In this document: positions 48,122 through 61,277 of the stretch, one piece after another
Numbering within the stretch: position 1 is the first letter of the stretch
How the letters are laid out: every line of letters starts with the position of its first letter
From: Arthrobacter sp. NEB 688
GTDB lineage: Bacteria > Actinomycetota > Actinomycetes > Actinomycetales > Dermatophilaceae
Direction: 5' to 3'
Assembly (NCBI RefSeq): GCF_013201035.1
Contig: NZ_CP053707.1
Location: forward strand, 682,001-746,000
DNA: 64,000 nt
The notes under the pieces: generated by a model
What the model saw: only the letters and a program-made list of their open reading frames with translations
Databases searched by the model: none
What the model was told of the DNA's origin: nothing
Translations under genes and position numbers: made by a program

Positions 48122-48159
48122 GATGACACGAGTCATCCCGACGGGTGACACCTGTCACT
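48122..48159 (+). promoter_or_regulatory. Paired TGAC-N4-GTCA operators before lanKC
   Basis: GATGACACGAGTCATC (48122-48137) and GTGACACCTGTCAC (48145-48158) both contain TGAC-N4-GTCA; the cores start at 48124 and 48146, 22 bp or two helix turns apart. TGACGG at 48159 directly after them could be a -35. The same palindrome precedes lanA, the exporter and the oxidase operon. Confidence 0.7.
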
Positions 48160-48241
48160 GACGGTCCGTGCGCGTCGCCGACAGGATCGACGGCCTGGGG
48201 GAGCCGCCGGCGTTCCTCCGCCCTGAGCCGCAGGAGCCCGG

Positions 48242-50875
48242 ATGGACCCACGCCACCTCGCCCACGCCGACGCCGACCCCGACTTCTACGACGACGTGTG
48301 GCAGGTGTCGCCCGACGCCGCCGACGTCCTCGGGCCGGCCGTCGTCCCGGAGCGCGTCGAGGTGAGCGACCAGGGGCCGTGGCGGGTCTACCGCACGCCC
48401 TGCCTCCTGCCGGACTCCGGCTGGAAGGTGCACGTGTCGTGCGTGCCCTCCCGCGCCGAGCACGTCGTCCCGCTCGTCGTCGCCGAGGCGCTGGCCGAGG
48501 ACCTCACGTGCAAGCACCTGCGCACGCGCCGCCTCGTCGCGGCGACCCAGGCGAAGTACGCGGAGCCGGCCGGCGCGGGCAAGGTCGTCACGGTCTACCC
48601 CGTCGACGAGACCTCGCTGGCCCGCATCGTCGCGCGCCTCACGGTGCTGCTCGCCGGCGAGCCCGGCGCCCGCGTGCTCAGCGACGTCCCGGTCGACGGC
48701 GCCCCCGTCTCGGTGCGCTTCGGGGCCTTCCGCGGCGTCCGGCACCTCGACGCGCAGGGGCGCTGGGGCATCGGGCGCGTGGGCGACACCGGCACCGGGT
48801 CGGCTGCCGACGACCGCTCGCCGCACAGCGGCTGCCGCGGGGCGGCCGTCGTGCCGGCGCTCGTCGCGGCCCTGCGGGACGCCGCCTCCGCACGGGACCG
48901 CGGGGCGCTCCTGCCGGTCACCGACGTGCGCGTCGTCCACCGCTCGAACGCCGGCGGCGTCTACAGCGCCACCTGGGAGGACGGCCGCCGGGTCGTCCTC
49001 AAGGAGGCCCGCCGCCACACCGGCTTCGACCTCGCCGGCAGCGACGCCGTCACCCGCCTGCGCCACGAGCGGCGCGCGCTCGAGCGGCTCGCCGGCACCG
49101 GCGTGGTGCCCGAGGTCGTCGCGCACCACGTCGCCGGTGACAGCGAGTTCCTCGTCATGGAGCACGTCGCCGGCCCGACCGTCACCTCCGGGATGGCGAC
49201 CGGCCACCCCGCGGCGGTGCCGGGCGCCGACGCCGCCACCTACCGGACCTGGGTCGACGCCGTCGTCACCCGGACCGGGGAGGCCCTGGCGGTGCTCCAC
49301 GCGCACGGCGTCACCCACCGTGACGTCCACCCGGGCAACGTCATCGAGCGGGACGGGCGGGTCGTCCTCGTCGACCTCGAGTCCTCCGCCGTCGACGGCG
49401 TCGCGGTCGCCAAGGGCGTCGCCACCGCCCTCTCGAGCACCGGGGACGACGTGACCCCCGCGGCCGACCTCGCGGCCCTCGCGCGGATGGGCGCGCTGCT
49501 CGTCAACCCCCAGTACGCCCTGACCGCCCGCCGCCCCGAGCTCGCGGCGGAGCTGAGCGGGGTCGGCGAGGCCGACCTCGCGGGACCGGACGGGGTCGGC
49601 CACGGAGGAGGGGCCGTGGCCGACCCCGGGGTCCCGCCCGTCCCCGTCGCTCCCTGCCGGCCGACGCCGCCCTGCCCCGAGCGCCTCGTCGCCGGGCTCC
49701 ACGTCGCCGCCGACCCCGCCCGGCCCGACCGGCTCCTGCCGTCGGACGTGGCGGGCTTCTCCGTCCCGGGGGGCGGGCTCGGCCTGCTCCACGGCGCCGG
49801 GGGCGTCCTCGCCACGCTGGCGGCCACCGGCCGTCCCGTCCCGGACGCCTGGCGCGGATGGCTCGTGCAGCGCTCCCTCGACGCCCCGTGGCTGGCCCCG
49901 GGGCTCGCCGACGGCGCCGAGGGCATCGCCCTCTGCCTGGCCCGGATCGGCGAGCGCGACGCCGCCCGGACCCTCGTCGACCGGTGGGCGGACCGCGAGA
50001 GCGCGAGCCCCTGGTGGTCGCGGGGCAGCGCCGGCCGGGCCCTCGCCCACGCCGAGCTGGCCGGCCTGCTCGACGAGCCGGCGCTCGTCGCCTCGGCCCT
50101 CGGTCTCGTCGCCGACACCCTCGAACGCGTCGAGGCCGACGTCCCCCCGCCCGGGGTCCGGGCCGGGCTCCTCGACGGCTGGGCCGGCGTCGGCCTGGCC
50201 CTGCTGCGCGTCGCCGAGCTCGTCGACGGCCACGCCGGCGGCGGGGTCACGACCCGGCTGCGGGCCGCGGCCCACCGGGCGATGCGCCGCGAGTGCGCGG
50301 CCGTCCACGTGCGGGCGGGGGCGTGGCTCGCGAGCGACGGGACCCGCGTCATGCCCTACCTGGGCACGGGCTCGGCCGCCCTCGGGCTGCTGGCGGCCGC
50401 GCTCGGCGGGCGCCCCGACGCAGGCCTCCCGGTGTCGGACACGGCACCGGACCCCGCCGCCGTCACGCCGGACGAGGCCGTCACCGGTGTCGTGCGCGCC
50501 CTCGAGCTGCGCTCGGTCGCCGGGGCGGGCCTGCTCCACGGCCGCGCCGGCCTGCTCGCCACCCTCGCCGTCGTCGCCCCGGCCCACCCGGCCGTCACGC
50601 TGCACCGCGAGCGGCTCGGCTGGTACACGGTGCCCGTCGCCGGCACCTCGCGGCGCGAGCACCCCCTCGCGGGGGACGCGGACCTGCTGCTCGGCGACCA
50701 GAACATCCGGTGCTCGGCCGACCTCGGATCCGGTTCTGCCGGAGCCATTCTCGTCGGCGACGAGCACGTCGACCGGACCGCGCGGGCGGTCACGCACGTG
50801 CTGGGGCTGCCCGAGGTCCACCGGTCCGTCACGCGGGTCACGCCGGGGATGACACCCGTCACGACGAGCCACTGA
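48242..50875 (+). CDS. lanKC: Class III lanthipeptide synthetase LanKC
   Basis: 877 residues in three parts. The N-terminal phosphoSer/Thr lyase region has CKHLRTRRLVAATQAKYAEPAGAGKVVTVYP; the kinase domain has VVLKEARRHTG (ATP lysine, about residue 250), HRDVHPGNVI (catalytic loop, about 358) and LVDLESS (metal loop); the LanC-like cyclase (about 520-877) has GSAGRALAHAEL, GWAGVGLALL and GLLHGRAGLLATL but none of the zinc cysteines of LanC/LanL, which is class III rather than IV. It dehydrates Ser/Thr of the precursor and forms lanthionine or labionin. AGGAG precedes the ATG. Confidence 0.94.
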   Translation: MDPRHLAHADADPDFYDDVWQVSPDAADVLGPAVVPERVEVSDQGPWRVYRTPCLLPDSGWKVHVSCVPSRAEHVVPLVVAEALAEDLTCKHLRTRRLVAATQAKYAEPAGAGKVVTVYPVDETSLARIVARLTVLLAGEPGARVLSDVPVDGAPVSVRFGAFRGVRHLDAQGRWGIGRVGDTGTGSAADDRSPHSGCRGAAVVPALVAALRDAASARDRGALLPVTDVRVVHRSNAGGVYSATWEDGRRVVLKEARRHTGFDLAGSDAVTRLRHERRALERLAGTGVVPEVVAHHVAGDSEFLVMEHVAGPTVTSGMATGHPAAVPGADAATYRTWVDAVVTRTGEALAVLHAHGVTHRDVHPGNVIERDGRVVLVDLESSAVDGVAVAKGVATALSSTGDDVTPAADLAALARMGALLVNPQYALTARRPELAAELSGVGEADLAGPDGVGHGGGAVADPGVPPVPVAPCRPTPPCPERLVAGLHVAADPARPDRLLPSDVAGFSVPGGGLGLLHGAGGVLATLAATGRPVPDAWRGWLVQRSLDAPWLAPGLADGAEGIALCLARIGERDAARTLVDRWADRESASPWWSRGSAGRALAHAELAGLLDEPALVASALGLVADTLERVEADVPPPGVRAGLLDGWAGVGLALLRVAELVDGHAGGGVTTRLRAAAHRAMRRECAAVHVRAGAWLASDGTRVMPYLGTGSAALGLLAAALGGRPDAGLPVSDTAPDPAAVTPDEAVTGVVRALELRSVAGAGLLHGRAGLLATLAVVAPAHPAVTLHRERLGWYTVPVAGTSRREHPLAGDADLLLGDQNIRCSADLGSGSAGAILVGDEHVDRTARAVTHVLGLPEVHRSVTRVTPGMTPVTTSH
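50850..50861 (+). promoter_or_regulatory. TGAC-N4-GTCA operator before lanA
   Basis: TGACACCCGTCA lies within the last codons of lanKC, 109 bases before the lanA start. CACTGACGG follows, as it does after the lanKC sites, and may be the -35 region. A hairpin TCCCGG-CGAT-CCGGGA at 50894-50909 stands in the lanA leader. Confidence 0.6.
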
Positions 50876-50969
50876 CGGCGGGTACTACAGCGCTCCCGGC
50901 GATCCGGGAAGAGTAGAGCCAGTCGGAGGGAGAGCCCACCGACACACCACTGGGAGAGGACCACACACC

Positions 50970-51071
50970 ATGAGCGTCACCGAGATGCAGACCCTGGCCA
51001 CCGAGGACGAGACCTCCACGGGTGTCGTCGCCGACTGGCAGTTCAGCACCATCTCCATCGTCTACTGCTGA
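50970..51071 (+). CDS. lanA: Class III lanthipeptide precursor
   Basis: 33 residues. The leader contains VTEMQ at residues 3-7, fitting the hydrophobic-x-x-hydrophobic-Gln recognition box of class III leaders, and an acidic patch TEDE. The end is WQFSTISIVYC: S26-x-x-S29-x-x-x-C33 is exactly the pattern that LanKC enzymes convert to labionin, with cysteine as the last residue. There are no other cysteines, so only one ring is possible. GGAGAGG lies 11 bases before the ATG. It directly follows lanKC and is too short for routine gene finding. Confidence 0.88.
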   Translation: MSVTEMQTLATEDETSTGVVADWQFSTISIVYC

Positions 51072-51079
51072 GCACGAAC

Positions 51080-51775
51080 ATGGACACGTCGACCCCCGTC
51101 CGCACGGGTCAGCGGGTCCGCCCGGAGCTCCCCGCCACCCGGGTCGTCGCCCTCGTGGTGAGCGACCTCGCCGTCGCCGGAGCCCCCGAGCGGGCCGCGG
51201 CGACCCTGCACGGTGCCCGGTTCGAGGTCGAGGCGGGGACCGTCACGGTCCTCACCCCCGCCCGCGCCGGCCGCACCGTCGTCCTCTGCCTCACCGGGCA
51301 GCTCGCCCGGTCGGGAGGGACCGTCGAGACCGGCGACGGCCCCTCCCGCCGCGACGTCGCCACGACGTCCTGGCAGCTGGCCGTCACCCACGACCCGGAC
51401 CCCGCGGGCCCCGCGCCCGACACCACCGCGGCCGACCTCCTGGCGGGCGCCGGCCGCGGCGCCGCCCGGGCGGCCGCCCGGCTCGGGCTGACCCCGGTGC
51501 TGCAGCAGCCGGTCGCGGGCCTCGACCCCGCCGAGCGCACGCTCCTCGGGGTCGCCCTGGCCCTGGCCGACGGGCCCGACGTCGTCGCGCTCGAGCACCC
51601 CGCCGCGCGGCTGGACGCCGACGACCTGGGGCGCGTCCTCGACGCCGTCCGCGACCTCGTCGACGTCGACGGACGCACCGTCCTGCTCGTCGAGGACCTC
51701 GACCGCCTCCCGGCCGCGGTGCACCCGCTCGTCGACGCGGTCGTCGAGCTCGGCCCGTTCCTCGGCGCGCCGTGA
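51080..51775 (+). CDS. Degenerate ABC-ATPase-like protein of the lanthipeptide cluster
   Basis: 231 residues that follow the ABC ATPase plan with key residues lost. The Walker A place reads LTPARAGRTV (Lys to Arg, first glycines lost), the signature LSGGQ place reads VAGLDPAE, Walker B reads PDVVALEHP (Asp-Glu lost), the D-loop ARLDADDL is kept and the H-loop His is replaced in LLVEDLDRL. It is unlikely to hydrolyse ATP normally. It begins eight bases after the lanA stop without its own ribosome site, so it is coupled to lanA. It may be a partner of the exporter or a binding protein for the peptide; the role is unknown. Confidence 0.75.
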   Translation: MDTSTPVRTGQRVRPELPATRVVALVVSDLAVAGAPERAAATLHGARFEVEAGTVTVLTPARAGRTVVLCLTGQLARSGGTVETGDGPSRRDVATTSWQLAVTHDPDPAGPAPDTTAADLLAGAGRGAARAAARLGLTPVLQQPVAGLDPAERTLLGVALALADGPDVVALEHPAARLDADDLGRVLDAVRDLVDVDGRTVLLVEDLDRLPAAVHPLVDAVVELGPFLGAP

Positions 51776-51830
51776 GGCGGGGCGGCTGTTACGGTGCTGG
51801 CGTCGCCGGGAGGGCAGGAGTTGCACGGGG

Positions 51831-52991
51831 ATGCCAGTGAAGAACCAGGGCAGTGATGCCCGGATCGCCCTCGTCGCGTCGTGGGCGGTCGTCATCGTCA
51901 TCGTCGTGCAGGGCACCTTGTCCATGCTCACGCAGGTCAACGACGCCCGGATGCCGCTCGAGCGCGTCGCGGCGGTCGTCTCCGGCCTCGTCGCGGCCGC
52001 GCTCTTCACGGTCGTCCAGCTGCGGACCGTCCGCGACCGCCCGGTGCCGCCGTGGATGCCGTGGCTCGTCGTCCTCACCGCGACCGCGTCGTTCGTCGCC
52101 GGGGTGTGGCTCAACGCCTCGCTCGTGCTCGGGACCGCGATGCTCCTGCTCGAGGGGCGGCGCCTGGCCGCCACCTGGCTGGGGTACGTCCTGCTCATCG
52201 CGGGCTTCATGCTCACCCAGGACGTCAACCCGTTCATCGCCGGCTTCCTCACGCTCGTCGCCGCCGCCATCGGGCTGCTGCTCTACGTGCTGACCCGCCT
52301 CGCGGTCACCGTCGGCGAGCTCGCCCGGGCCCGCGAGACCGTGGCCCGGCTGCGCGTCGACGAGGAGCGCCACCGCATCTCGCGCGACCTGCACGACATC
52401 CTCGGCCGCAGCCTCGTCGCCGTCGGCCTGCGCATCCAGACCGCCATCCGCCTGCTCGAGCGCGACCCGCAGCGCTGCGGCGAGCAGCTCGAGGAGGTCG
52501 CCCGGATGGTCACCGAGGGGCAGTCGCAGCTGCGCGGCCTGACCCGCGGCGAGACCGTCGTCGGCTTCGAGGACGAGCTCGCGTCCGCGCAGGACATCTT
52601 CGAGCGCCTCGGCATCCGCTGCACGACCGACGTCGACGCGGACGGCACCGTCGGCGATCTCGTCGACACCCTCGGCTCGCGGGTGCTGCGCGAGTCGGTC
52701 ACCAACCTCCTCAAGCACTCCCGACCCACGTGGGTCGAGATCGGCCTGCGCGAGGAGGCGACGGCCAGCGTGCTCGTCATCGTCAACGACGGCGCCTCCG
52801 ACACCGGGCGCGCCCGGGGCACCGGCCTCGCGGACCTCGCCGAGCGCGCGAGCGCCCTCGGCGGCTCGCTCGAGGCGGGGCACCTGCCCGGCGGGCGCTT
52901 CCGCGCCATCTGCCGGATGCCCGCCGCCCACCCCACCGACCCCTCCGACCTCGCGGCCGACCGGCCGACACCCCTGGGAGCCCGATCGTGA
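51831..52991 (+). CDS. Sensor histidine kinase (NarL-system type)
   Basis: 386 residues. About five membrane helices fill the first 160 residues, without an extracytoplasmic sensor domain, then ERHRISRDLHDILGRSLVAVGLRI is a HisKA_3 box with the phospho-acceptor His near residue 187; RESVTNLLKHS is the N-box and GTGLADLAERASALGG the G-box. Such kinases often sense membrane state or the peptide product. TACGGT at about 51789 may give a separate promoter. GTGA overlap couples it to the response regulator. Confidence 0.9.
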   Translation: MPVKNQGSDARIALVASWAVVIVIVVQGTLSMLTQVNDARMPLERVAAVVSGLVAAALFTVVQLRTVRDRPVPPWMPWLVVLTATASFVAGVWLNASLVLGTAMLLLEGRRLAATWLGYVLLIAGFMLTQDVNPFIAGFLTLVAAAIGLLLYVLTRLAVTVGELARARETVARLRVDEERHRISRDLHDILGRSLVAVGLRIQTAIRLLERDPQRCGEQLEEVARMVTEGQSQLRGLTRGETVVGFEDELASAQDIFERLGIRCTTDVDADGTVGDLVDTLGSRVLRESVTNLLKHSRPTWVEIGLREEATASVLVIVNDGASDTGRARGTGLADLAERASALGGSLEAGHLPGGRFRAICRMPAAHPTDPSDLAADRPTPLGARS

Positions 52992-53626
52992 CCGACACCT
53001 CCACCTCCGCGGACGCCGTCGTCGACCCCGACCGGCTGCGCATCCTCATCGCCGAGGACGTCGACCTCGTCGCCGAGGCCTTCGAGGCCCTGCTGGGCAC
53101 CGAGCCCTCCTTCGAGGTCGTCGGCCGGGTCAGCCGCGGCGACGAGGTGGCGGCCGCCGTCCAGCGGCTGCGCCCGGACGTCGCCGTCCTCGACGTCGAC
53201 ATGCCCGGCGCCACCGGCATCGAGGCCGCCGCGCAGGTCACCGACTGCAAGGTGCTGCTGCTCACCGCCCTCGAGGGCCCGGGCCACATGCACAAGGCCC
53301 TGGCCGCCGGCGCCAACGGCTACATCCTCAAGTCGACGACCGGCAGCCGGCTCGTCGAGGCCATCCGCACCGTCGCCGCGGGCGGGACGGCCATCGACCC
53401 CGAGCTCGCCGCCGAGGCGCTGCGCAGCGGCCCGTGCCCCCTCACCGACCGCGAGATCGACATCCTCCGGCTCGTCGGGCAGGGCCGCAGCACCGAGGAC
53501 ATCGCCGGTGGGCTGTTCCTCTCGCGCGGGACCGTGCGCAACTACCTGAGCAACGCGATGGTCAAGCTGGACGCGCAGTCGCGCGCGGAGGCGTTCGCCA
53601 AGGCCGAGCGCCGCGGCTGGCTCTGA
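52988..53626 (+). CDS. NarL/LuxR-family response regulator
   Basis: 212 residues. Receiver domain with acidic pocket IAEDVD and phospho-acceptor D69 in VAVLDVDMPG, LLTALEG and YILKSTTG (conserved Lys); LuxR HTH PLTDREIDILRLVGQGRSTEDIAGGLFLSRGTVRNYLSNAMVKL at the C-terminus. It is the natural candidate to bind the palindrome TGAC-N4-GTCA found six times in the cluster, since LuxR-type dimers use such short palindromes. This assignment is inferred from position. Confidence 0.93.
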   Translation: MTDTSTSADAVVDPDRLRILIAEDVDLVAEAFEALLGTEPSFEVVGRVSRGDEVAAAVQRLRPDVAVLDVDMPGATGIEAAAQVTDCKVLLLTALEGPGHMHKALAAGANGYILKSTTGSRLVEAIRTVAAGGTAIDPELAAEALRSGPCPLTDREIDILRLVGQGRSTEDIAGGLFLSRGTVRNYLSNAMVKLDAQSRAEAFAKAERRGWL

Positions 53627-53641
53627 CCCCTCCGGGGTGGC

Positions 53642-53674
53642 TGACATCGGTCATCCGCCGGGTGCAGCGCGTCA
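53642..53674 (+). promoter_or_regulatory. TGAC-N4-GTCA operator before the ABC exporter
   Basis: TGACATCGGTCA (53642-53653) is a full site; TGCAGCGCGTCA (53663-53674), 21 bp further, differs at one core base and may be a second, weaker site, mirroring the 22-bp pair before lanKC. Confidence 0.6.
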
Positions 53675-53771
53675 CCGCCCGGCCCCCGGCCCCTTGGCCC
53701 GCCGCGGCCCGCCTGCGTTGATGGGGTGACCCGCGGGGCACCCGGCCCCCGGACCGCCGAAGGGGAGCCCC

Positions 53772-54740
<969 letters not shown>

Positions 54741-54793
54741 CCGCACCCGGCCCCGATCCCGTCACCACCCGAACCAGAGCCCAGGAGAACCCG

Positions 54794-55549
54794 ATGCAGC
54801 TCCTCCGCGACGCGACCGTCGTCTTCCGCCGGCAGGTGCGCCTCAACCTCCGCAACCCCGCGTGGGTCCTGCTCGGGGTGGCGCAGCCGATCCTCTACCT
54901 CGTCCTCTTCGCCCCCCTCCTGGGCCCGATCGCCGCCCAGATCGGGGTCGAGAACGCCTACACGTTCTTCGTCCCCGGGCTCGTCGTGCAGATGGGCCTG
55001 TTCGGCGCCCTGTACGTCGGCTTCGGGCTGCTCGCCGAGTGGCGCGAGGGCGTCCTCGAGGCCGAGCGCGTCTCGCCCGCGAGCCGCGGCGCGCTGCTGC
55101 TCGGCCGGCTCGGGCGCGACGTCCTCCAGCTCGGCATCCAGTGCCTCGTGCTCGTCGGGGCCGGCTACGCCTTCGGGATGGACGCCCCCCTGTCGGGCGC
55201 CCTCGCCGGGGTCGGGCTCGCGCTGCTCCTCGGGGCCGCCGGGTCGGCGCTGTCCAACGCCATCGCCCTGCGCACCCGCAGCGAGGAGATCATGGCGCCG
55301 CTCGTCAACGTCGTGACGATGCCCGTGCTCCTGCTCTCGGGCATCCTCCTGCCGATGACGCTCGGGCCGGGCTGGCTGCGCACCGTCAGCGACGTCATGC
55401 CGGTCCGCTACGTCGTCGACGCCGTCCGCAGCGCCTTCTCCGGCGACCTCGCCGTGCCCGCCGTCGGGACCGGCCTGGCCGTCACCGGCACGCTCCTCGT
55501 CCTCGGGCTGACCGCCGGCGTCCTCGCCTTCCGTCGTGAGGACGCCTGA
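54794..55549 (+). CDS. ABC-2 type transporter permease
   Basis: 251 residues, six membrane helices. VRLNLRNPAWVLLGVAQPILYLVLFAPLLG at the start, WREGVLEAERVSPASRGALLLGRLGRDVLQLG and LLSGILLPMTLGPGWLRTVSDVMPVRYVVDAVRSAF are ABC-2 (DrrB-like) signatures. It follows the ATPase gene by 53 bases with AGGAG before its ATG. Confidence 0.92.
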   Translation: MQLLRDATVVFRRQVRLNLRNPAWVLLGVAQPILYLVLFAPLLGPIAAQIGVENAYTFFVPGLVVQMGLFGALYVGFGLLAEWREGVLEAERVSPASRGALLLGRLGRDVLQLGIQCLVLVGAGYAFGMDAPLSGALAGVGLALLLGAAGSALSNAIALRTRSEEIMAPLVNVVTMPVLLLSGILLPMTLGPGWLRTVSDVMPVRYVVDAVRSAFSGDLAVPAVGTGLAVTGTLLVLGLTAGVLAFRREDA

Positions 55550-55624
55550 CCCGCGGCCCACACCGCAGCACCCCACCGTCGAACACCCGGCCGGTCGTGA
55601 CCTCGTCTCCGACCCGCCGGGTGT

Positions 55625-55669
55625 TGACGCGTGTCAGCGTCCCGGCCCTGCGCGCGGTGACCGATGTCA
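55625..55669 (+). promoter_or_regulatory. Two TGAC-N4-GTCA operators before the multicopper oxidase operon
   Basis: TGACGCGTGTCA (55625-55636) and TGACCGATGTCA (55658-55669, extended palindrome GGTGACCGATGTCACC) start 33 bp apart, three helix turns. They show that the oxidase-aminohydroxybenzoate operon is likely to be under the same regulator as lanKC and lanA. Confidence 0.7.
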
Positions 55670-55775: not shown

Positions 55776-57293
55776 ATGATCAACCGCCGCAGCGCCATCC
55801 GGCTCGCAGGAGCCGGCACCCTGTCCGCCGTCGCCGGGCAGCAGCTCGTCGCCCGGGCCGGCACCGCCGAGCTGCCGCAGGGGCTCGCCCTCGGCCGGGG
55901 CGGCCACGGGGCCCACACCGGGGCGGGCATGCGCACCGTCCGCCCCGCCGACGCCGGCAGCCGCCCGGCGCTCGAGAAGTTCACCCTGCCGCTGCCCCTC
56001 CTGCGCACCGCGAAGCCGGTGACGACGAGCGGTGGCCAGGACGTCTACCTCAGCAGCATCCGCGAGGTGACCGCCGAGGTCTTCCCCGGTCACCGCGTGC
56101 CGGTGTACGGCTACTTCGGCAGCTGGGTGCCGCCGGTCATCCGCGCCCGCTCCGGCCGCCGCACGGTCGTCATCCAGCGCAACGAGACGACGGTCCCGGT
56201 GTCGGTGCACCTCCACGGGGGCGTCAACCGCGACGTCTTCGACGGCCAGATGTCGCGCCCGGTCCGGCCCGGCGGCGTCTTCAGCTACGTCTACGAGAAC
56301 GACCAGCCGGCCGCTGCCCTCTGGCTGCACGACCACACCCACCACACCGACGCCGAGAACGTCTACCGGGGCATGTCGAGCCCGTACCTCCTGTCGAGCC
56401 CCGAGGAGGACGCGCTCGGGCTGCCCTCCGGCGAGTTCGAGGTGCCGCTCGTCCTGCGCGACGGCGACTTCGGCTCCGACGGCGGCCTCGTCTTCACGAT
56501 GGACGACACCGAGCACCGCTCGACCGTCCTCGTCAACGGCACGCCCTGGCCGCGGATGGACGTCAAGCGCCGGAAGTACCGCTTCCGCGTCATCAACTCC
56601 TCGGCGATGCGCTTCTTCGTCCTCGGCTTGTCCGACGGCACGCCGATGACGCAGATCGGCAGCGACGCGAGCCTGCTCGAGGCACCGGTCACCGCACCGG
56701 TCGTCGTCGTCTCGCCCGGCGAGCGCGCCGACCTCGTCGTCGACTTCTCGCAGTGGGCGACCGGCACCGAGGTCGACGTCGTCAACTACATCGGCCCCGG
56801 CCCGATGGAGGACGTCGGCCAGGTGATGCGCTTCCGCGTCGGCGCGAACGCCCCCGACGACAGCGTCGTGCCCGACCGGCTGACGACCCTGCCGGCGGTC
56901 CCGGCCGCGACGGTCAAGCGGGCCTTCACCCTCGAGAGCAGCGAGCCGGGCGTCAGCCCGATGTACGGGTCGATCAACGGCCGCAGCTTCGACATGAGCC
57001 GCGTCGACACCACCGTCCGCTTCGGCACGACGGAGGAGTGGACGGTGACGAACGCGAACCCGACGATCCCGCACAACTTCCACTGCCACCTGGCGCACAT
57101 GCGGGTCGTCGACCGCAGCACCGGCCCGGCCGCCCCGAACGAGCTCGGGCTCAAGGACACCGTGCAGATCTTCCCCGGCGAGAGCATCCGCGTGCGGCTG
57201 ACCTTCGACCGGTACCGCGGCGTCTACCCCTACCACTGCCACATGCTCGACCACGGCGCGATGGGCATGATGGCCCAGCTCAAGGTGGTGTGA
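55776..57293 (+). CDS. Tat-exported multicopper oxidase (laccase / phenoxazinone synthase-like)
   Basis: 505 residues. NRRSAIRLAGAGTLSAVAG is a twin-arginine signal. All four copper motifs are present: HLHGG (about 144), LWLHDHTHH (about 184), IPHNFHCHL (about 431) and YPYHCHMLDHGAMGMM (about 487), the last giving the type 1 Cys-His-Met site. The layout resembles CotA, bilirubin oxidase and the phenoxazinone synthase PhsA, which couples o-aminophenols. Next to genes predicted to make an o-aminophenol acid, an aminophenol oxidase role is attractive but inferred. GGAGAGG precedes the ATG. Confidence 0.9.
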   Translation: MINRRSAIRLAGAGTLSAVAGQQLVARAGTAELPQGLALGRGGHGAHTGAGMRTVRPADAGSRPALEKFTLPLPLLRTAKPVTTSGGQDVYLSSIREVTAEVFPGHRVPVYGYFGSWVPPVIRARSGRRTVVIQRNETTVPVSVHLHGGVNRDVFDGQMSRPVRPGGVFSYVYENDQPAAALWLHDHTHHTDAENVYRGMSSPYLLSSPEEDALGLPSGEFEVPLVLRDGDFGSDGGLVFTMDDTEHRSTVLVNGTPWPRMDVKRRKYRFRVINSSAMRFFVLGLSDGTPMTQIGSDASLLEAPVTAPVVVVSPGERADLVVDFSQWATGTEVDVVNYIGPGPMEDVGQVMRFRVGANAPDDSVVPDRLTTLPAVPAATVKRAFTLESSEPGVSPMYGSINGRSFDMSRVDTTVRFGTTEEWTVTNANPTIPHNFHCHLAHMRVVDRSTGPAAPNELGLKDTVQIFPGESIRVRLTFDRYRGVYPYHCHMLDHGAMGMMAQLKVV

Positions 57294-57296
57294 GCG

Positions 57297-58847
57297 ATGA
57301 CCACCGAGGCCCTCCTCCGCCCGGCCGCGGCCGTCCCTCCGGCGCCGGCCGCCGCCAGCAGCACCGCCGCGCTCCTCGCCCGGCTCGAGCACTCCACCGC
57401 GCCGGCCCTGCTGACGCCCGACCGCTCGCTGACCGGCCGCAAGGTCGTCACCCGGGTCCGGGCCACCGCTGCGGTCCTCGCCGCGCACGGCGTGGGCGCC
57501 GGCCGGGTGGTCGCGCTGCTCAGCGGGCCCAACGACCCCGACGTCGTCGTCGCACGGCACGCCGCCCGGCTCGTCGGCGCCACCGTCGTCCACCTGCGCT
57601 CGATGAACCCGCGCAGCGACGAGGAGGAGTTCGCCGTGGAGGCCCAGCTCGACGTCCTCGACCGCACCGGCGCGGACGTCGTCGTCACCGACGCCGCGTC
57701 GGCCGGGCGGTCCACGCAGCTGCGGGCCCGGCGCCCCGGCCTCCTCGTCGTCCCGACCACCGACGACGCGGGCCCCGTGCCGGCGGCCGCCCCGTGGGAG
57801 AACGACCCGGGGGAGTGCACCGTCGTCGACGTCACGAGCGGCACGACCGGTGCCCCCCGCCTCGTGCGCCAGGGGCACGCGGCCCGCGAGCGCCTCGTCG
57901 CGCGGCTGGCCGACGACCTCGGGCCGGTGCCGACGCGCCTGCTGTCGGTCACCCCGGTCACGCACACGACCGCCCCGATGCTCGACGCCGTCCTCCTGCG
58001 CGGCGGCTCGGTCGTCCTGCACCGCGGCTTCGACGCCGAGGCGGTGCTCGACGCGGTCGAGGCGGGCGTCACCGACCTCTACCTCGCCGTGCCGCACCTC
58101 TGTGCGCTGCTCGACCACCCCCGCACCGCGACGGCGCGGCTGGGCGGGCTGCGCCGGGTCGTCTACAGCGGCACCCCGGCCGCGCCGCACCGCGTGGCCG
58201 CCGCCCGCGCCGTGTTCGGCGACGCCGTCGCCCAGGTCTACGGGACGACCGAGACCGGCGGCATCAGCGTGCTCACCCCCGAGGACCACGACGAGCCGCT
58301 GCTGCGCGGCACGGTCGGCCGGCCCTTCCCGTGGGTGCAGGTCGAGGTCCGCGACCCCGACTCCGGCGACCCGCTGCCGCTCGGCCACGCCGGCGCGGTC
58401 TGGGTCCGCTCCGAGACGACGGCCGACGGCTACTGGGCCGAGGACGACACCGACCGGATGGCGCCCGACGGCTGGGTCGGCACCGGCGACCTCGGCGCCC
58501 TCGAGGCCCACGGCCGGCTCCGGCTCGTCGGGCGGCTCGGCGGCGTCATCAAGCTCGGCGGGCTGAAGATCCACCCCGCCGCCATCGAGTCGGCGCTGCG
58601 CGAGCACCCGGCCGTGTCCGAGGCCGTCGTCCACGGGCTGCGCGACGCCGAGCGGCGCGAGTCCGTCCACGCGGTCGTCGTGCCCACGGCCGGCCGCGAC
58701 GTCGACGAGGCCGAGCTCGTCGCCCACGTGACCCGGCGGCTGAGCGCCGCCCACGCACCGACCCGCGTCGTCGTCTGGCGCGGGGTGCCGCTGACCCGGT
58801 CGGGCAAGCCCGACCGCCGCCTCGTCCGAGAGCTCCTGGGGGGATGA
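57297..58847 (+). CDS. AMP-forming acyl/aryl ligase (ANL superfamily)
   Basis: 516 residues. A3 is VTSGTTGAPRLV (about residue 177; usual Lys is Arg here), A5 is VYGTTETGG, A7 is GTGDLG, A8 is GRLGGVIKLGGLKIHPAAIE, and A10 is LTRSGKPDRRLV with the catalytic lysine near residue 502. It would activate a carboxylic acid as adenylate and pass it to CoA or an amine. It starts three bases after the oxidase stop and its own stop overlaps the aldolase start (ATGA). The likely substrate by context is 3-amino-4-hydroxybenzoate. No carrier protein is in the cluster. Confidence 0.88.
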   Translation: MTTEALLRPAAAVPPAPAAASSTAALLARLEHSTAPALLTPDRSLTGRKVVTRVRATAAVLAAHGVGAGRVVALLSGPNDPDVVVARHAARLVGATVVHLRSMNPRSDEEEFAVEAQLDVLDRTGADVVVTDAASAGRSTQLRARRPGLLVVPTTDDAGPVPAAAPWENDPGECTVVDVTSGTTGAPRLVRQGHAARERLVARLADDLGPVPTRLLSVTPVTHTTAPMLDAVLLRGGSVVLHRGFDAEAVLDAVEAGVTDLYLAVPHLCALLDHPRTATARLGGLRRVVYSGTPAAPHRVAAARAVFGDAVAQVYGTTETGGISVLTPEDHDEPLLRGTVGRPFPWVQVEVRDPDSGDPLPLGHAGAVWVRSETTADGYWAEDDTDRMAPDGWVGTGDLGALEAHGRLRLVGRLGGVIKLGGLKIHPAAIESALREHPAVSEAVVHGLRDAERRESVHAVVVPTAGRDVDEAELVAHVTRRLSAAHAPTRVVVWRGVPLTRSGKPDRRLVRELLGG

Positions 58848-59701
58848 CCGTGCCGACCACCACGACCGGCCCGCGCGCCACGCGCCTGCGCCGCCTCTAC
58901 CGCCACGGCCCCCACGGGCTCCTCGTGACGCCGCTCGACCACACCCTCGCCTGCGGGCCGGTGACGAGCCCCGGCCGCCGCCTCGACGACCTCGTCGCCG
59001 CCCTCGCCGCCGGGGGCTCGGACGCCGTCGTCCTGCACAAGGGGGCCGTCCGGCACGTCGCGCCCGAGCACCTCGCCGCCGTCTCGCTCGTCGTGCACCT
59101 CAACGGCAGCACCGCCTCGGCCGCCGACCCCGACGACAAGGTGATGCTCACCTCCGTCGAGGAGGCCCTCCGGCTCGGCGCGGACGCGGTGAGCGTCCAC
59201 GTCAACCTCGGGTCGGCCACGGAGGCACGGCAGCTGGCCGACCTCGCCGACGTCGCCGCCGCCTGCGACCGCTGGAACCTGCCGCTGCTCGTCATGGTCT
59301 ACCCGCGCGGCCCGGCCGTCCTCGACCCCACCGACCCCGAGCTGCTCCTGCGGGCCGTCACCGTCGCCGCCGACCTCGGCGCGGACCTCGTGAAGACCGC
59401 CGCCCCCCGCGACGTCGCGACGACCCGCGACCTCGTCGAGAGCTGCCCGGTGCCGCTCCTCCTCGCCGGCGGCCCCCCGCGGGCCACCGAGCGCGAGCTC
59501 GTCGCCGACGTGCGCCGCGCCCTCGCCGGGGGCGTCGGCGGGCTCGCCATGGGCCGGGCGCTCTTCCGCGCCGCGGACCCCCGCCGCACGACCGCCACCG
59601 TGGCGGCCCTGATCCACCAGAGACCGGGACTCGTCGCGAGCCCGCACACCCACCAGGAAGGAATGACCCATGTCGACGACGACCAGGCTGTGCTGGCTTG
59701 A
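58844..59701 (+). CDS. 2-amino-3,7-dideoxyheptulosonate synthase family aldolase (GriI-like)
   Basis: 285 residues. GLLVTPLDHTLACGPVTSPG, DAVVLHKGAVRHV, VHLNGSTASAADP, VSVHVNLGSATEARQL, LLVMVYPRGP and ADLVKTAAPRD (Schiff-base lysine near residue 182) closely follow the DhnA-type class I aldolases such as MJ0400 (AroA') and GriI. GriI joins aspartate semialdehyde and dihydroxyacetone phosphate to the C7 precursor of 3,4-AHBA. Its last 32 bases overlap the next gene, and the tail SPHTHQEGMTHVDDDQAVLA is an extension beyond the fold. Confidence 0.88.
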   Translation: MTVPTTTTGPRATRLRRLYRHGPHGLLVTPLDHTLACGPVTSPGRRLDDLVAALAAGGSDAVVLHKGAVRHVAPEHLAAVSLVVHLNGSTASAADPDDKVMLTSVEEALRLGADAVSVHVNLGSATEARQLADLADVAAACDRWNLPLLVMVYPRGPAVLDPTDPELLLRAVTVAADLGADLVKTAAPRDVATTRDLVESCPVPLLLAGGPPRATERELVADVRRALAGGVGGLAMGRALFRAADPRRTTATVAALIHQRPGLVASPHTHQEGMTHVDDDQAVLA

Positions 59702-60782
59702 CCTGCGCGAGGCGACGTCCCGGGACGCGATCGTCGAGGAGGCCCTGCACCAGGGCATCGACGGCCTCGTCGCGGCGCACCCCTCGGAGCTCGCGGACCT
59801 GCCGCCCTCCATCGACCGCGTGCTCCTCTCGGAGGAGCCCGTCGCCCCCGGCACCGACCTCGGCGTCGCCGACGTCGTCGTGGCCCCGATGACCCCGGCC
59901 GAGCGCCGGGCCCTGCGGGCGGCGCACCCGGACGTGCGCTTCGGCGTCTACGTCGACGTCGCGGACGCCCCGACGCTCGAGGACGCCTGCGTCGCCGCGA
60001 GCACGGAGGACCTGACGGTCATCCGGTTCCGCGACCCCACGAAGATCCCGCTCGAGATCGTCCTCGCGGCGGCCGACGCCTGCGACGGGTCGGTCGTCAC
60101 GATGGCCGGCGACCTCGAGGAGGCGCAGATCATCTACACCGTCCTCGAGCACGGGTCGGACGGCGTCGCGCTGCGGGCCCGCGCCGTGGGGGAGGCCACC
60201 GCGCTGCGGGCGGCCGCGCTCGGCGGGTCCGACCCGGTCAAGCTCGACGAGCTGCGGGTCGTGCGCACGACGCACGTCGGCCTGGGGGAGCGCGCCTGCA
60301 TCGACACGTGCTCCTACCTCGGGCTCGACGAGGGCATCCTCGTCGGCTCGACGTCCAAGGGGCAGGTCCTCTGCGTCAGCGAGACCCATCCCCTGCCGTA
60401 CATGCCGACGCGCCCCTTCCGGGTCAACGCCGGCGCCATCCACTCCTACACGCTCGGCGAGAACGGCCGCACCCGCTACCTCTCGGAGCTGCGCGCCGGG
60501 GACCGCGTCACCGCCGTCCGCACCGACGGCAGCACCCGCCTCGTGACGGTCGGCCGCGTCAAGATCGAGAGCCGCCCGCTCATCAGCATCGACGCCGAGA
60601 GCTCCGACGGGCGTGCGGTCAACCTCATCCTCCAGCACGACTGGCACGTACGCGTGCTCGGCCCGGGCGCGGAGGTCCTCAACAGCACCGAGCTGCGTCC
60701 GGGACACATCGTCCTCGGACACCTCCCGACCGCCGACCGGCACGTCGGGTACCCGATCCGGGAGTTCTGCCGCGAGCAGTGA
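59670..60782 (+). CDS. 3-dehydroquinate synthase II family protein (GriH-like)
   Basis: 370 residues. CWLDLREATSRDAIVEEALHQGIDGLV at the start, then YVVVRFRDPTKIPLE-like segment VIRFRDPTKIPLEIVLA, GSDGVALRARAVGEATALRA, ERACIDTCSYLGLDEGILVGSTSKGQVLCVSETHPLPYMPTRPFRVNAGAIHSYTL and VGRVKIESRPLISIDAE are the hallmark blocks of the AroB'/GriH family. GriH closes the C7N1 chain to 3-amino-4-hydroxybenzoate without oxidation. AGGAAGGA stands before the ATG at 59670 inside the upstream gene, supporting the overlap. Confidence 0.92.
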   Translation: MSTTTRLCWLDLREATSRDAIVEEALHQGIDGLVAAHPSELADLPPSIDRVLLSEEPVAPGTDLGVADVVVAPMTPAERRALRAAHPDVRFGVYVDVADAPTLEDACVAASTEDLTVIRFRDPTKIPLEIVLAAADACDGSVVTMAGDLEEAQIIYTVLEHGSDGVALRARAVGEATALRAAALGGSDPVKLDELRVVRTTHVGLGERACIDTCSYLGLDEGILVGSTSKGQVLCVSETHPLPYMPTRPFRVNAGAIHSYTLGENGRTRYLSELRAGDRVTAVRTDGSTRLVTVGRVKIESRPLISIDAESSDGRAVNLILQHDWHVRVLGPGAEVLNSTELRPGHIVLGHLPTADRHVGYPIREFCREQ

Positions 60783-60836
60783 CCCGAGGTCAACCACCCC
60801 GTGCCCCGTTCCGGCACACCACGAAAGGAAGCCACC

Positions 60837-61277
60837 ATGTCCGCACACACCATCGCCGACGCGCCCCTGGCCGCACCGGTCGCCCGCCCCGGCGTCTCGA
60901 CCCTCGTGACCGCCACGGTCCGCGCGGCCGTCGTCGCCCTCGTCGCCAACGTCCTGGTCCACACGCTCGCCCGGGTCGCCGGCGTCGAGACCGTGCTCAC
61001 CCCTCCCGGCGCCGCCCCCGTCACCGTCGCGCCGTTCGCGGTCGTCACGATGACGCTCGTCCCGGTCGTCGTCGGCGGCGTCGCGCTCGTCCTGTTCGCC
61101 CGGGTGTCGCCGGGCAGCGTCCGGGCCCTGCCCTGGGTCGGCCTGCTCATCGGCGTCGGCACCGTCGTCATGCCGCTCTCGATGGGCGGCGACCTCGGTG
61201 GCCGCCTCGTCCTCGCCGCGATGCACGTCATCACCGGCGTGGCCTGGTTCGTCAGCGTCCGGCGCGCCCGCGACTGA
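60837..61277 (+). CDS. Four-helix membrane protein (DUF6069-like)
   Basis: 146 residues with four membrane helices (about 28-48, 67-87, 97-115, 122-140) and short loops. Sequences such as RAAVVALVANVLVHTLARVAGV and LGGRLVLAAMHVITGVAWFVSVRR resemble the DUF6069 family of actinobacterial membrane proteins of unknown role. AAAGGAAG precedes the ATG. It is the last gene before the terminator and may be an immunity, transport or accessory factor. Confidence 0.75.
   Translation: MSAHTIADAPLAAPVARPGVSTLVTATVRAAVVALVANVLVHTLARVAGVETVLTPPGAAPVTVAPFAVVTMTLVPVVVGGVALVLFARVSPGSVRALPWVGLLIGVGTVVMPLSMGGDLGGRLVLAAMHVITGVAWFVSVRRARD

What the first reader, a model, noticed from the sequence alone, without database searches (positions are those of the whole stretch)
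48122..55669. Six TGAC-N4-GTCA palindromes define one regulon
Perfect sites start at 48124, 48146 (before lanKC), 50850 (before lanA), 53642 (before the exporter), 55625 and 55658 (before the oxidase operon). Pairs are spaced by 22 and 33 bp, whole helix turns. A pattern with eight fixed bases should occur about once per 64 kb by chance, so six within 7.5 kb, each in front of a transcription unit, is strong. The encoded NarL-type regulator is the obvious binder.
Basis: partly seen in the sequence, partly recalled or inferred. Interest (0 to 1): 0.82.

Follow-up and report, generated by a model that had tools for sequence, protein, structure and literature searches.

The report
DesR-type operators of a lanthipeptide cluster
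Six short mirror-image DNA sites in front of four gene blocks look like docking sites for the switch protein encoded in the same cluster, tying a peptide natural product, its exporter and an aromatic-acid/oxidase gene block into one regulon.

Summary
All six TGAC-N4-GTCA sites are where stated. The genome has 97 in 4.08 Mb, so six in 7.5 kb has Poisson P about 4e-8. G399 keeps all six sites and G267 five of six, with spacer bases changing at some sites while half-sites hold. One correction: 50850 lies inside the last codons of lanKC.

The binder inference holds and can be sharpened. The cluster's regulator is DesR-like, and TGAC-N4-GTCA is the core of the published DesR motif ATGACA-N2-TGTCAT (PMC11034029). 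Near related regulators of the order, the motif lies in 23 of 27 ABC-gene start windows, first of 2,816 palindromes tested. A second TGA starts exactly 23 bp on in 14 of those 23; the window's promoters show full to very weak second copies at 21-23 bp.

The window's regulator sits in a strongly supported clade; 7 of its 11 loci hold LanKC-like sequence. A membrane-protein gene outside the cluster has the site in 4 of 4 regulator-bearing congeners and in 0 of 2 lacking it. Binding is untested. Known operator type, new regulon.

The parts
48124..48135 (+). operator palindrome TGACACGAGTCA, first of the lanKC pair
   Evidence: the half-sites are kept in G399 and G267 while the four spacer bases differ in each
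48146..48157 (+). operator palindrome TGACACCTGTCA, second of the lanKC pair, +22 bp; 84 bases before the lanKC start
   Evidence: identical in the three species
48242..50875 (+). lanKC, class III lanthionine synthetase-like, 877 aa
   Evidence: RamC_N; NF038151 at 496.6 bits, below its cut-off of 575
50850..50861 (+). operator palindrome TGACACCCGTCA inside the 3' end of lanKC, 108 bases before lanA; partial second copy TGACGGCGGGTA at 50873 (+23)
50970..51071 (+). lanA, 33-aa precursor ending ...STISIVYC
   Evidence: 97% and 70% identical in G399 and G267; no NCBIfam match
51080..51775 (+). degenerate ABC-ATPase-like protein, 231 aa
   Evidence: no Pfam match, weak ABC matches in NCBIfam
51831..52991 (+). 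membrane histidine kinase, HisKA_3 type
   Evidence: four hydrophobic stretches by a simple hydropathy scan
52988..53626 (+). DesR-like NarL/LuxR-type response regulator, the proposed binder
53642..53653 (+). operator palindrome TGACATCGGTCA, 118 bases before the exporter ATPase; partial second copy TGCAGCGCGTCA at 53663 (+21)
   Evidence: in G267 the spacer is ACAC, half-sites kept
53772..54740 (+). exporter ATPase, DrrA-like
54794..55549 (+). exporter permease, DrrB-like
55625..55636 (+). extra operator palindrome TGACGCGTGTCA, 33 bp upstream of the main oxidase-operon site
   Evidence: kept in G399, lost in G267
55658..55669 (+). operator palindrome TGACCGATGTCA, 106 bases before the oxidase; only a TGAT remnant at +21 (by eye)
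   Evidence: no second copy of 6 or more of 8 matching bases within 13-35 bp
55776..57293 (+). multicopper oxidase
57297..58847 (+). AMP-binding ligase
58847..59701 (+). DeoC/LacD-type aldolase, like BagB/FevI of 3,4-AHBA synthesis
   Evidence: BagB/FevI model below cut-off; PRK07226 above
59670..60782 (+). DHQS-II-like protein, like the 3,4-AHBA synthase BagC/FevH
   Evidence: BagC/FevH model below cut-off; DHQS II above

Best explanation
The palindromes are operators of the DesR type, bound by the DesR-like response regulator encoded at 52988-53626 after its partner kinase (51831-52991) phosphorylates it. Each of the four promoters (lanKC; lanA with the downstream pseudo-ABC, kinase and regulator genes; exporter; oxidase/3,4-AHBA operon) carries a strong palindrome (core close to TGACA-N2-TGTCA) and a second copy 21-23 bp downstream, full at lanKC, partial at lanA and exporter, a bare remnant at the oxidase operon, so that two regulator dimers can sit side by side about two helix turns apart. 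The oxidase operon has an extra palindrome 33 bp upstream. The regulator most likely activates all four units and, through the lanA unit, its own genes. Shown here: the sites, their conservation, the family-wide motif association, and association of one site outside the cluster with this regulator. Inferred: binding, phosphorylation dependence, side-by-side dimers, activation, operon structure and feedback.
For: Six sites in 7.5 kb against 97 in the genome. Conservation at the same promoters in G399 (6 of 6) and G267 (5 of 6), with half-sites kept while spacers change at the first lanKC site and the exporter site. Best solved match DesR, 155.3 bits against 97 for DevR and 70 for NarL; recognition helix GTVRNYLS against GTVRNYIS in DesR. 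Published DesR motif ATGACA-N2-TGTCAT and predicted RR11 motif with a second TGAC 22 bp on. Motif in 23 of 27 ABC start windows near related regulators, top of 2,816 palindromes; for the 20 loci fetched after the pattern was first seen, 16 of 17 with an ABC match. Second TGA at +23 in 14 of 23. Membrane-protein gene with the site in 4 of 4 congeners having the regulator and 0 of 2 lacking it.
Against: No binding or expression data. Related regulators share the motif, and a paralog in this genome has it at its own ABC promoter, so the sequence alone does not single out this regulator. Outside the cluster, congeners with the regulator have 3, 5, 4 and 4 narrow-pattern sites and those without it 2, 6, 3, 1, 4, 5, 4 and 0. 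Second copies are weak at three promoters. No perfect site lies directly before the kinase gene. 4 of 27 ABC windows lack the motif (L121, L123, L129, L158), and the 3-kb locus L119 of the same clade has none.
Confidence: 0.87

Rival explanations
1. The operators are real DesR-type sites but are read mainly by another DesR-like regulator of the same genome, or shared among several, rather than by the clustered one.
For: The genome has four matches to the regulator at E <= 1e-30; a paralog's ABC promoter carries TGACATCCGTCA (L139); the motif is common to regulators only 44-52% identical.
Against: The regulator gene lies inside the cluster in all three species with it. The membrane-gene site follows presence of this regulator: 4 of 4 against 0 of 2, although that is a small number. 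The recognition helix of the clade reads GTVRNYLS while several paralogs shown read GTVRNHLS.
Confidence: 0.1
2. A transcription factor of another family, encoded elsewhere, uses the palindromes, and the overlap with the DesR motif is a coincidence.
For: Many regulator families bind short palindromes (general knowledge); no binding data exist.
Against: Match to the published DesR motif and the association with DesR-like regulators in many families of the order.
Confidence: 0.02
3. Chance clustering of a word favoured by this genome's codon usage.
For: The word is seven times commoner in the genome than its reversal (97 against 14), and two window copies are in coding sequence.
Against: P about 4e-8 at the genome's own density, conservation with spacer turnover, family-wide recurrence.
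Confidence: 0.01

Closest known systems
DesK-DesR of Bacillus subtilis
   Same: NarL-type response regulator of the same sequence group (best solved match 4ldz) with a HisKA_3-type kinase; motif ATGACA-N2-TGTCAT has the same core (PMC11034029)
   Different: DesR controls membrane lipid desaturation (recalled); here the sites precede a lanthipeptide cluster, an exporter and a 3,4-AHBA/oxidase operon. The kinase's sensor part was not compared beyond a hydropathy scan
Pneumococcal TCS11 (RR11)
   Same: DesR homolog in an operon with two ABC transporters; predicted motif ATGACATTTGTCAT-N7-AGTGACA with a second TGAC 22 bp on
   Different: A predicted motif with a single target operon; no biosynthetic cluster
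RamR/AmfR regulators of SapB/AmfS lanthipeptide clusters (recalled)
   Same: NarL/LuxR-type regulators encoded in class III lanthipeptide clusters
   Different: Not compared by sequence or motif here; no binding motif for them was found in the papers seen (listing)
Bagremycin/ferroverdin-type 3,4-AHBA genes (BagB/FevI, BagC/FevH)
   Same: Aldolase and DHQS-II-like synthase pair for 3-amino-4-hydroxybenzoate
   Different: Here beside a multicopper oxidase and an AMP ligase, with operators shared with a lanthipeptide cluster; both BagB/FevI and BagC/FevH model scores are below their cut-offs

Membership tests
DesR-type operator | palindrome with core TGACA-N2-TGTCA | tested here: met
   TGAC-N4-GTCA exact in six of six; the fifth position A/T is kept on both sides in one of the six (48146) and on one side in the other five (orientation)
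DesR-type operator | second copy about two helix turns away | tested here: inconclusive
   full copy at lanKC (+22), partial at lanA (+23) and exporter (+21), only TGAT at the oxidase operon; +23 in 14 of 23 family sites
DesR-like response regulators | receiver plus LuxR-type DNA-binding domain closest to DesR | tested here: met
   In the tree DesR and 4hye form a pair apart from the window's clade; deeper forks are weak
DesR-like response regulators | partner HisKA_3 kinase with several transmembrane helices | tested here: met
   helix number uncertain (four hydrophobic stretches found; DesK is described as having five, abstract)
Direct regulon of the clustered regulator | regulator binds the sites and changes transcription | not testable with these tools
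   needs binding and expression data
Class III lanthipeptide cluster | LanKC synthetase with a short precursor beside it | tested here: inconclusive
   RamC_N above its cut-off and NF038151 the best model over 831 residues, but below its cut-off, 496.6 against 575 bits; 33-aa frame with a labionin-type S-x2-S-x3-C end (motif recalled)

The most novel reading that the evidence does not exclude
The shared operators betray one product: 3-amino-4-hydroxybenzoate is made by the oxidase operon, adenylated by its ligase and joined to (or oxidatively coupled with, by the multicopper oxidase) the lanthipeptide, giving a hybrid aryl-lanthipeptide whose synthesis and export are switched as a unit by a DesR-type system.
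Probability: 0.2. Interest if true: 0.8.

Novelty: new member of a known kind. Interest (0 to 1): 0.5.

Why it matters
It assigns a testable operator to a large group of DesR-like two-component systems in this bacterial order, so regulons can be read from sequence. It points to a clade of these regulators often found beside class III lanthipeptide genes. It also gives a regulatory reason to treat the 3,4-AHBA/oxidase genes as part of this lanthipeptide cluster, which shapes what product to look for and how a silent cluster might be switched on.

Tried and rejected
Chance clustering: rejected. The narrow pattern TGACAYSNGTCA as a genome-wide regulon finder: rejected, because congeners with and without the regulator have similar numbers of such sites outside the cluster, and two of the three extra sites of this genome recur where the regulator is absent: sites at S53 peptidase genes in G401 and G397 (L177, L182) and at the paralog's ABC gene in G402 and G401 (L179, L186). 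egtB as the conserved outside target: replaced. The contrast of 4 of 4 with and 0 of 7 without (whole loci, exact pattern) is confounded, because in six of those seven genomes the divergent membrane gene is not beside egtB; the fair count is by membrane gene, 4 of 4 against 0 of 2. Two loci (L193, L197) are on the minus strand, so its printed upstream stretch and one-mismatch check do not apply to them; the exact scan of the whole locus does. In one search the upstream check is valid only for L219 (G235); the rows L215-L218 and L221 were read in the wrong orientation and are not used. Five of the 32 family loci were left out because tblastn found no ABC gene (L128, L130, L147, L148, L150). The 32 loci came from the upper part of the ranked list, not at random; one of them, L121, falls in the window regulator's clade, and four (L153, L154, L157, L159) have identical regulators, so the loci are not all independent (20 sites remain after removing near-copies). 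The test was prompted by the first 12 loci (7 of 10 with an ABC match); the 20 fetched afterwards give 16 of 17. Literature: among the rows listed, no paper joined DesK-type kinases with class III lanthipeptides (20 of 170 listed, 10 of 559) or 3,4-AHBA with lanthipeptides (10 of 50); listings and abstract starts only. Text searches for the motif; PMC7726353 looked up for the motif, no passage found. searched for RamR binding sites; listing only.
Full report
Observation. A scan of the window finds TGAC-N4-GTCA eight times: the six positions named, and 23283 and 32491. The last two lie inside open reading frames. Shuffled windows give 0.93 on average. The whole genome (4,077,299 bp; window at C1:682001-746000) has 97 sites, while the same word read backwards has 14. 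At the genome's own density 0.18 sites are expected in 7.5 kb and six have P about 4e-8. Spacings of 22 and 33 bp are as stated. One detail needs correction: the lanA-facing site (50850-50861) lies within the last codons of lanKC (ORF 48242-50875), not between genes.

Genes. lanKC 48242-50875 (RamC_N domain; NF038151 at 496.6 bits, below its cut-off of 575), lanA 50970-51071 (33 aa), a degenerate ABC-ATPase-like protein, a HisKA_3 kinase, a NarL/LuxR-type response regulator 52988-53626, a DrrAB-like exporter, then a multicopper oxidase, an AMP ligase, a BagB/FevI-like aldolase and a BagC/FevH-like 3,4-AHBA synthase (the last two are below the cut-offs of those exact models but above those of broader ones). 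The palindrome nearest each gene leaves 84, 108, 118 and 106 bases before the starts of lanKC, lanA, exporter ATPase and oxidase (counted).

Conservation. Of 12 genomes of the genus, this one included, 3 hold LanKC at E <= 1e-60 and 4 hold the regulator at E <= 1e-55: this one, G399 (95%), G267 (89%) and G400 (82%). In G399 all six sites recur at the same places; in G267 five of six do, the upstream oxidase site being lost. Alignments show half-sites held while spacers change: first lanKC site ACGA/ACCG/GGGC, exporter site ATCG/ATCG/ACAC. The second lanKC site, the lanA site and the main oxidase site are identical in the three.

The binder. The regulator's best solved relative is DesR of B. 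subtilis (155.3 bits, E 1.4e-44); DevR, VraR and NarL score 97, 96 and 70. The recognition helix reads GTVRNYLS here and GTVRNYIS in DesR. PMC11034029 (passages and section 17 read) gives the DesR motif as ATGACA-N2-TGTCAT and predicts ATGACATTTGTCAT-N7-AGTGACA for the pneumococcal homolog RR11. The window's sites carry that core; the second TGAC of the RR11 motif starts 22 bp after the first, as in the lanKC pair.

Family test. I took 20-kb stretches (one 11.6 kb) around 32 regulators of the order that are 44-52% identical to this one. In 27 of the 32 an ABC ATPase gene was found by tblastn. In the 400 bp around its start (350 upstream), TGAC-N4-GTCA is present in 23 of 27. Among 2,816 palindromes (256 half-sites, spacers 0-10) it ranks first; the next two (14 and 10 windows) are nested in it and the first unrelated one reaches 9. 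The idea came from the first 12 loci (7 of 10 with an ABC match); the 20 fetched afterwards give 16 of 17. In the 23 sites a second TGA begins exactly 23 bp after the first in 14, TGAC in 12. So the operator, often with a second half-copy, is a property of this regulator group and not peculiar to the window. In the window the second copy is full at lanKC (+22), partial at lanA (+23, TGACGGCGGGTA) and exporter (+21, TGCAGCGCGTCA), and only TGAT at the oxidase operon (+21, by eye; the scan found no copy there).

Clade. In a 45-row tree the window's regulator sits in a clade of 11 with 100/100 support. LanKC-like sequence lies within the stretch examined in 7 of the 11 (window, L137, L115, L116, L117, L120, and a short C-terminal match in L005 of Flexivirga caeni), not in L118, L138, L121 or the 3-kb contig L119. 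Of 7 loci examined besides the window, 6 have a 31-33-aa open reading frame with a lanthionine-type Ser/Thr-Cys motif within 260 bp downstream of a palindrome; L118 has none. That search required a nearby site, so it describes the arrangement and is not independent evidence.

Target outside the cluster. One further narrow-pattern site of this genome (C1:762568, 26.7 kb past the last cluster... counted from 735642 to 762568: 26.9 kb beyond the exporter site) lies between egtB and a divergent 197-aa membrane-protein gene (weak DUF7010 similarity, below cut-off). That gene occurs in 6 of 12 congeners. In the 4 that have the regulator a perfect palindrome lies upstream of it, also in G400, which has the kinase and regulator but no LanKC match. 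In the 2 that lack the regulator there is none: G235 has no match within one mismatch in 300 bp, and in G401 the gene matches in two separate pieces and one half-site differs from the palindrome. The numbers are small, but they link the palindrome to this regulator rather than to its paralogs.

Limits. No binding or expression evidence exists. A paralog's ABC promoter in this genome has the same kind of site (L139), so cross-talk is possible. Outside the cluster, congeners with the regulator do not have clearly more narrow-pattern sites (3, 5, 4, 4) than those without (2, 6, 3, 1, 4, 5, 4, 0), so the regulon seems small. Activation is inferred from DesR and from the location upstream of all four units; promoters and operons were not established. 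A TACTAC at 50883, shared by the three species, may be a -10 element, no more than suggestive.

Verdict. The finding is real and its interpretation stands. It is a new member of a known kind of operator (DesR type) in a new setting: a lanthipeptide cluster joined with a 3,4-AHBA/oxidase operon. That the two make one joined product is the boldest reading not excluded; nothing here tests it beyond the shared operators and the shared presence in three species.

Noticed in passing
window 51080-51775: A 231-aa ABC-ATPase-like protein with no Pfam match and weak ABC matches only, lying between lanA and the kinase gene; its Walker A region looks degenerate by eye. A similar-looking frame precedes the kinase in L005 (7985-8524). 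Possibly a sensory partner of the kinase.
   Followed up: no
window 55776-60782: Multicopper oxidase, AMP ligase and a 3,4-AHBA-type aldolase/synthase pair in one block beside a lanthipeptide cluster, in the same order in three species.
   Followed up: partly
L138 6905-8631 (G400): Kinase and regulator (83% identical in the tblastn stretch) kept next to the sugar-binding protein gene without any LanKC match: either the cluster was lost or the regulator pair came first.
   Followed up: partly
L134 4994-5005 and L139 5061-5072: The same 12-mer TGACATCCGTCA lies before an S53-type peptidase gene and before a paralogous ABC-kinase-regulator set, and recurs at both genes in G399 and G400: perhaps a second DesR-type regulon with its own spacer.
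   Followed up: partly
L005 10762-16929 and 19648-19812: In Flexivirga caeni the related regulator lies next to genes that look (by eye) like an azole-forming peptide pathway, with a second short precursor-like frame near another palindrome (19977): one regulator type beside two kinds of peptide product.
   Followed up: no
window 60801-61277: A DUF6069 membrane-type protein follows the 3,4-AHBA genes and is kept in G399 and G267; its role is unknown.
   Followed up: no
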